DNA from: Dysidea avara
Taxonomy: Eukaryota > Porifera > Demospongiae > Dictyoceratida > Dysideidae
DNA: 64,000 nucleotides
Reading direction: 5' to 3'
Assembly: GCF_963678975.1 (NCBI RefSeq)
Contig: NC_089274.1
Coordinates: 7,842,143 to 7,906,142, forward strand
Position numbers and translations under genes: made by a program. Shown here in pieces: positions 13,245 through 40,924 of the stretch (position 1 is its first letter; each line of letters starts with the position of its first letter). A model generated the notes under the pieces. That model worked only from the letters and a program-made list of their open reading frames with translations, searched no databases and was not told the origin of the DNA.

Positions 13245-13461
13245 ATGGATAAGCAGTCAGTTAAAAGTGTTCTTACTACAGAGGTAAGAGACGAGCACAC
13301 TATACAATATGCACGCGTGCACTGTTCTTTCTATTGTTTTGTTTTATATAACGCGCACCCCTTTCTGTTGTAGGGCTACTTGTTCGCAGATTTGATTGCA
13401 CCTGACGTTGTTAAGTGCCTTCAAAGTTTTAACCGTTTCAAGGGATCTTTCCGTGAAATTG
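13245..13461 (+). CDS. UEV-kinase gene, exons 1 and 2
   Basis: Exon 1 (13245-13283) encodes [13 protein letters not shown] and ends at donor GTAAGA. Exon 2 (13374-13461) follows acceptor TTCTGTTGTAG in phase 0 and encodes [16 protein letters not shown] through SFREI plus one base, ending at donor GTATGC. The FADL...[11 protein letters not shown] stretch lines up with the first helices of the TSG101 UEV domain (YRDLTVRETVNVI). The intron between is 90 bp, so the compact form of the gene may be ancestral and the 20-kb second intron a product of transposon growth. Confidence 0.75.

Positions 13462-40924: not shown

What the first reader, a model, noticed from the sequence alone, without database searches (positions are those of the whole stretch)
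13245..40924. A TSG101-like UEV domain fused to a coiled-coil TKL-like kinase
Seen: UEV exons (13374-13461, 33661-33868, start of 36110-36410), a Pro-rich linker, a coiled coil and a complete kinase domain, with matching splice phases from 33661 to 40924. Known: TSG101 is UEV, Pro-rich region, coiled coil, steadiness box, and is the cargo-binding part of ESCRT-I; TKL-like coiled-coil kinases are expanded in sponges. Inferred: the steadiness box has been replaced by a kinase, giving a possible link between ubiquitin or PTAP recognition and phosphorylation. I do not know of this combination being described. It is my best candidate for a new system in this window.
Basis: partly seen in the sequence, partly recalled or inferred. 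Interest (0 to 1): 0.88.

Follow-up and report, generated by a model that had tools for sequence, protein, structure and literature searches.

The report
Sponge gene joining UEV and kinase
A sponge appears to carry one gene that joins a ubiquitin-reader-type domain, copied from the cell-sorting gene TSG101 with its introns, to a signalling kinase, a pairing not found in the papers searched; it still needs an RNA test.

Summary
The window lies in a 550.8 Mb assembly, almost certainly the sponge Dysidea avara. A seven-exon GT-AG model (2,034 nt, 677 aa) reads UEV, Pro-rich linker, long helix, protein kinase. A UEV exon was missed at 28781-28852: 72 nt, phase 1-1, as long as exon 3 of the genome's own TSG101. 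With it Pfam's UEV matches along the whole domain (profile 3-120 of 121, E 1.3e-14). All four UEV introns keep TSG101's phases, two at exactly the same place and two within one codon, so this half is a TSG101 copy with its introns. TSG101 itself survives elsewhere with its steadiness box. UEV, linker and kinase exons have relatives in unnamed records, and identity falls where the exons end. No RNA was available and no full-length protein surfaced in the database. Two supposed PTAP-groove tyrosines are not kept. Likely working (inferred): a kinase recruited by ubiquitin or a ubiquitin-like fold, like TAB2/3-TAK1 in one chain. Other kinases of the same family are fused to ubiquitin-like repeats.

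The parts
13245..13283 (+). exon 1, 13 codons from ATG, ends in phase 0 ([13 protein letters not shown])
   Evidence: gtaaga donor; TSG101 exon 1 of the same genome also has 13 codons and ends in phase 0
13374..13461 (+). exon 2, UEV first helix, ends in phase 1
   Evidence: aligned with TSG101 exon 2, same end phase, gtatgc against gtatgt donor; exons 1+2 score 64 against 20 for the best of 5,000 shuffles
   Evidence: same length, phase and register as TSG101 exon 3; score 37 against 20 for the best of 300 Markov sequences; acceptor ggtctttttgtatatag; donor gttcgt is unusual
   Evidence: PF05743; relatives P0122 50/59 and P0123 43/58 identical inside the exon, 3/12 and 4/12 beyond its donor
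36110..36410 (+). exon 5, end of UEV ([14 protein letters not shown]) and Pro-rich linker, phase 0 to 1
   Evidence: ctag acceptor, gtaagc donor; relative P0124 71/93 identical, 0/9 in the intron read-through
39347..39556 (+). exon 6, Gln/Ser/Pro-rich linker, phase 1 to 1
   Evidence: open frame, cag acceptor, gtaagt donor, phases match; the least supported exon: no relative seen, and no search of a fitting length was made for it
39777..40924 (+). exon 7, long helix (coiled coil), complete protein kinase and stop
   Evidence: PF00069 9.2e-30; relatives P0002-P0004 at 97, 86, 82%; helix over residues 22-124 of the model

Best explanation
This is one seven-exon sponge gene coding a 677-aa protein: complete UEV domain, Pro-rich linker, long coiled coil, and a kinase of the TKL group with the usual catalytic motifs. 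The UEV half is a copy of the first exons of TSG101 with their introns. It was joined, through phase-1 introns, upstream of a coiled-coil-plus-kinase exon of a sponge-expanded family, other members of which carry ubiquitin-like repeats (joined in the same phase in the one case I read, L014). Proposed working (inferred): the UEV, which lacks an active-site cysteine, binds ubiquitin or a ubiquitin-like domain; the coiled coil pairs chains; clustering on the tag lets the kinases activate each other, as TAB2/3 and TAK1 do with separate subunits. Shown here: exon structure, homology, catalytic motifs, protein-level conservation of exons 4, 5 and 7. Inferred: a single transcript, ubiquitin binding, dimerisation, activation by proximity, substrates. 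I put the single gene at about 0.85 and the ubiquitin-recruitment mechanism at about 0.4.
For: Open 2,034-nt spliced frame, seven GT-AG exons, phases 0,1,1,0,1,1. The four UEV introns have the phases of the genome's TSG101, introns 2 and 3 at exactly the same place, introns 1 and 4 within one codon. Whole-domain PF05743 match, 54.6 bits, against 42.8 bits over 49-120 for the model without exon 3. Relatives of exons 4, 5 and 7, with identity falling beyond the donors of exons 4 and 5. P0121 (UEV exon) and P0002 (kinase) are both listed with a longest contig of 1,277,754 bases. Solved kinases that head the list: TAK1, MLK1, MLK4, CTR1, IRAK4. Kinases P0001-P0007 stand apart from 63 other rows, SH-aLRT 100. 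In L014 a ubiquitin exon reads into a kinase exon of the same family in phase 1. TAB2/3 combine a ubiquitin-binding domain, a coiled coil and TAK1 binding (PMC6027159, passages).
Against: No RNA evidence. A 15.3 kb intron and a 4.8 kb intron, the latter with piggyBac-like transposase pieces, separate exons 2, 3 and 4. The donor of exon 3 (gttcgt) is unusual. The database holds NCBI-named D. avara proteins, yet no full-length UEV-kinase surfaced. Relatives of the UEV exon and of the kinase outside the 1,277,754-base contig lie on different short contigs, so linkage there is not shown. Residues near the site of an inhibitor that blocks ubiquitin binding to human TSG101 (D40, S41, Y42, N54, T56, C73, W75, K90; PMC5680296 passages) are mostly changed here (C73 is kept), which speaks against ubiquitin binding in the TSG101 manner; several are changed in D. 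avara TSG101 too.
Confidence: 0.55

Rival explanations
1. Two neighbouring genes on one strand: a short UEV/Pro-rich protein ending by read-through after exon 5 or 6, and a kinase gene starting at an ATG in or just before exon 7.
For: The frames of exons 5 and 6 meet stops soon after their donors; the database predictions P0001 and P0002 start just before exon 7, but those look like single-frame predictions. AATAAA occurs at 36998, 37409, 37413 and 38209 in the AT-rich intron 5, and at 41534 after the kinase.
Against: Acceptors and donors with matching phases across exons 5-6-7; in P0124 identity stops at the exon 5 donor (0/9 beyond), so the read-through tail of exon 5 is not kept; the Ub-kinase paralogue in L014 also reads as an upstream module spliced in phase 1.
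Confidence: 0.12
2. A scaffold or decoy: the UEV-kinase works at endosomes beside ESCRT, phosphorylating ESCRT or cargo proteins, through the Pro-rich linker rather than through ubiquitin recruitment.
For: Origin of the UEV from TSG101; Pro-rich linker kept in a relative (P0124, 71/93).
Against: No steadiness box (Vps23 core) to enter ESCRT-I was seen in the fused protein; two supposed PTAP contacts are not kept.
Confidence: 0.2
3. A decaying gene: exons survive in the assembly but the gene is no longer made as one protein, given the transposon-bearing introns and the 20 kb span from exon 2 to exon 4.
For: Long introns, with piggyBac-like pieces in intron 3, and an unusual exon 3 donor.
Confidence: 0.08

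Closest known systems
TSG101 / Vps23 (ESCRT-I)
   Same: UEV with the same intron phases, followed by a Pro-rich linker
   Different: No steadiness box seen; coiled coil belongs to the kinase exon; kinase added; 50 of 143 aligned residues identical to the D. avara TSG101 UEV; two supposed PTAP contacts lost
Sponge coiled-coil kinases, some named 'dual specificity protein kinase shkE-like' or 'polyubiquitin-like' in Dysidea avara
   Same: Long coiled coil and kinase, 47-54% identity to P0008-P0032 in the alignment; in the one case read (L014) an upstream module is joined in phase 1
   Different: Others carry ubiquitin-like repeats or no recognised module; the lineage P0001-P0007 is separate in the tree, and here the module is a UEV
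TAB2/3-TAK1 (MAP3K7) complex
   Same: Ubiquitin reader, coiled coil and a TKL kinase acting together; TAK1 heads the list of solved kinases
   Different: Separate subunits, NZF instead of UEV; likeness of working only, no descent implied

Membership tests
UEV domain (PF05743) | Match over the curated cut-off along the whole domain | tested here: met
   54.6 bits against cut-off 27, profile 3-120 of 121
UEV domain (PF05743) | No active-site cysteine (location recalled) | tested here: met
   The segment [18 protein letters not shown] holds no Cys (sequence)
TSG101/Vps23 | Steadiness box / Vps23 core (PF09454) | tested here: not met
   Not among the 25 of 33 families shown for the 653-aa model without exon 3 (the list runs to E 0.19), nor for the linker exons at E up to 1; found in the genome's TSG101, 4.6e-12. 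The whole-genome PF09454 search did not complete
TSG101/Vps23 | PTAP groove tyrosines (human Y63, Y68; recalled) | tested here: not met
   The aligned stretch reads [15 protein letters not shown]. avara TSG101 reads VAIRGNSYNIP, keeping the second only
TSG101/Vps23 | Ubiquitin binding | not testable with these tools
   Several residues near the ubiquitin side changed (passages against the alignments); needs a binding assay
Protein kinase, TKL group | Lys, HRD..N, DFG, APE catalytic motifs | tested here: met
   [29 protein letters not shown] in the sequence; catalytic Lys, HRD, Asn, D and G of DFG, PE in invariant columns of 26 sequences
Protein kinase, TKL group | Closest solved kinases are TKL (group names recalled) | tested here: met
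   TAK1 4.8e-23, MLK1 4.8e-22, MLK4 3.5e-21, CTR1 1.1e-20, IRAK4 3.4e-20 head the list; tyrosine kinases CSK and Fyn come further down (60 of 197 shown)
Sponge ubiquitin-repeat kinases | N-terminal ubiquitin-like repeats | tested here: not met
   No ubiquitin family among the 25 of 33 families shown

The most novel reading that the evidence does not exclude
Sponges run a kinase network wired by ubiquitin folds: many paralogous kinases carry their own ubiquitin-like repeats, and one conserved kinase carries a TSG101-derived UEV that reads those repeats or ubiquitin chains, so that ligand and reader are both built into kinases of one family.
Probability: 0.15. Interest if true: 0.85.

Novelty: new variant of a known kind. 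Interest (0 to 1): 0.62.

Why it matters
It is a clear example of a trafficking reader domain moved, introns included, onto a signalling kinase in an early-branching animal. If expressed, it would be a single-chain ubiquitin-type-reader kinase, a setup that TAB2/3-TAK1 builds from several subunits, and a test case for how kinase modules are swapped through phase-1 introns.

Tried and rejected
First model with the exon start at 33661: rejected for the one-base phase error. A direct exon 2 to exon 4 splice (33693): in phase, but it drops the first UEV strand; replaced when the 72-nt exon was found. My first filter for the missing exon did not list it, because its peptide does not fit the motif pattern that I had asked for. 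In the gapped scan of 846 candidate exons the next place scored 31 against 39, and the reverse-strand control reached 24. One viral and one prokaryote contig scan with the kinase alignment found no relative. A database search with the UEV half inside a full-length query gave nothing at E up to 0.1 among 1,422 candidates (that query carried one extra Gly between exons 2 and 4 and lacked exon 3, and only proteins of fitting length were candidates). The fold of exon 7 is poor in the kinase part (mean pLDDT 57, pTM 0.35) and good only in the helix; I ran no fold search on it. Ubiquitin neighbourhood: 6 of the 30 kinase places that I entered have a ubiquitin match upstream on the same strand within 15 kb; I entered 30 of the 69 matches that are not this gene, and 66 of the 145 ubiquitin matches, so this is a lower bound, and one of the 6 lies 11.8 kb off. 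Paper searches for sponge polyubiquitin-kinase fusions (8 of 98 papers listed) and sponge kinomes (5 of 5) showed nothing on this pair in the titles and abstract starts listed; one search returned no paper.

Full report
Where it is. The window is G000:C3:7842143-7906142 of a 550.8 Mb, 108-contig assembly.

What was claimed, and what I found. UEV (PF05743) and kinase (PF00069) are both there. Its exon at 33661 does not splice in phase to 13374-13461. Three database proteins with this exon (P0121-P0123) read VVD, FLD and IIG at the same place, which fits an acceptor TAG just there, though I have DNA only for the window. Moving the start to 33693 restores the phase.

The missing exon. That left the first strand of the UEV absent. 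The genome's own TSG101 (C7, minus strand) has first exons of 39, 85, 72 and 164 coding nt with end phases 0, 1, 1, 0 (read; splice sites inferred from the sequence). A search of the 20 kb between exons 2 and 4 for a phase 1-1, 72-nt exon gave 28781-28852, peptide [24 protein letters not shown] against AFPPNYVQRDRLLSLFGTIPVAIR. Score 37; 0 of 300 first-order Markov sequences reached it, the best being 20; reverse strand -7. I took the length from TSG101, so score and length are not independent; the earlier scan without fixed length ranked the same start first, 39 against 31 for the next place and 24 for the reverse-strand control.

Homology of the N-terminus. Exons 1+2 align with TSG101 exons 1+2 at score 64; 0 of 5,000 shuffles reached it, the best being 20. 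The whole UEV is 50/143 identical to D. avara TSG101. Introns 2 and 3 are at the same place and phase; introns 1 and 4 have the same phase and lie within one codon. HMMER against solved structures still matches only the second half of the domain, exon 3 adding nothing there (40.3 bits against 41 before), whereas D. avara TSG101 matches human TSG101 almost throughout: the fused UEV has diverged much more.

The full model. 677 aa, seven exons, GT-AG. Exon 7 gives one predicted helix over residues 22-124, pLDDT 74-92 in the ten-residue blocks from 31 to 110, and a kinase part of low confidence. Catalytic motifs are intact. Solved kinases at the head of the list: TAK1, MLK1, MLK4, CTR1, IRAK4.

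Relatives. Kinase exon: P0002 97%, P0003 86%, P0004 82%, P0005-P0007 57-60%. UEV exon: P0122 50/59, P0123 43/58; linker exon: P0124 71/93; beyond the donors 3/12, 4/12 and 0/9; upstream of the proposed acceptor P0122 keeps 3/7. This is the pattern that coding exons under selection give. For the other records linkage is not shown. In a tree of 70 of the 120 listed kinases, P0001-P0004 (98) and P0005-P0007 together stand apart (100) from the other 63 rows, which include all 18 ubiquitin-bearing ones of that sample.

Kinase family. 71 places in the genome match the query (a lower bound); 70 cover kinase positions, and two of the 71 are this gene's own. 32 of the 120 database hits listed (of 419) carry ubiquitin (PF00240) with the kinase. 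In L014 a ubiquitin exon reads into the kinase exon in phase 1, as exons 5-6-7 do here. This suggests module exchange through phase-1 introns (inference). Two UEV places were found in the genome.

How it may work. See the best explanation. The TAB2/3-TAK1 comparison is by analogy (PMC6027159, passages). The UEV has lost several residues that line the site of an inhibitor of ubiquitin binding in human TSG101 (PMC5680296, passages) and two that I recall as PTAP contacts, so its ligand may differ from that of TSG101, for example a diverged ubiquitin-like repeat of a sister kinase.

Novelty. A search for sponge, UEV, kinase and domain architecture returned no paper; sponge, kinase, ubiquitin, domain combinations and Amphimedon returned nine and UEV domain, kinase domain, fusion and TSG101 five, none on this by title and abstract start; TSG101, UEV, kinase, domain fusion, ESCRT and evolution listed 10 of 74, none on this by listing. 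A preprint on ESCRT diversity mentions kinases at archaeal ESCRT loci but no UEV-kinase protein in the 12 of 14 places shown. The library lacks most subscription journals.

Limits. No RNA. Exon 6 rests on phase and splice sites alone. NCBI-named D. avara proteins are in the database but no full-length UEV-kinase surfaced, which may mean a split annotation, no annotation, or a record not held.

Noticed in passing
L014:1017-2523 and database hits P0016, P0017, P0025, P0043: Kinases of the same family fused to ubiquitin-like repeats, 32 of 120 listed hits; some are named polyubiquitin-like in Dysidea avara. A ubiquitin-kinase family in sponges may deserve its own study.
   Followed up: partly
11369-13120 (-), 51270-53063 (+), 60221-61255 (+): Three closely similar copies (by eye, the third partial) of an ORF with a weak, below-cut-off HMGL-like match (checked on the first copy only) and, by eye, an EF-hand-like end; the first copy lies head to head with exon 1, its first in-frame ATG under 200 bases away.
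   Followed up: no
30089-31827 (-): piggyBac-like transposase pieces (DDE_Tnp_1_7) inside intron 3.
   Followed up: no
44212-47044 (-): Three open frames that look by eye like parts of a retroelement polyprotein; described only.
   Followed up: no
18570-18776: Long CA/TG dinucleotide repeat in intron 2.
   Followed up: no
G000:C7:12088839 (L014) and C7:11881648 (TSG101): A Ub-kinase of this family lies about 0.2 Mb from TSG101 on the same contig; chance or a hint to how the fusion arose.
   Followed up: no
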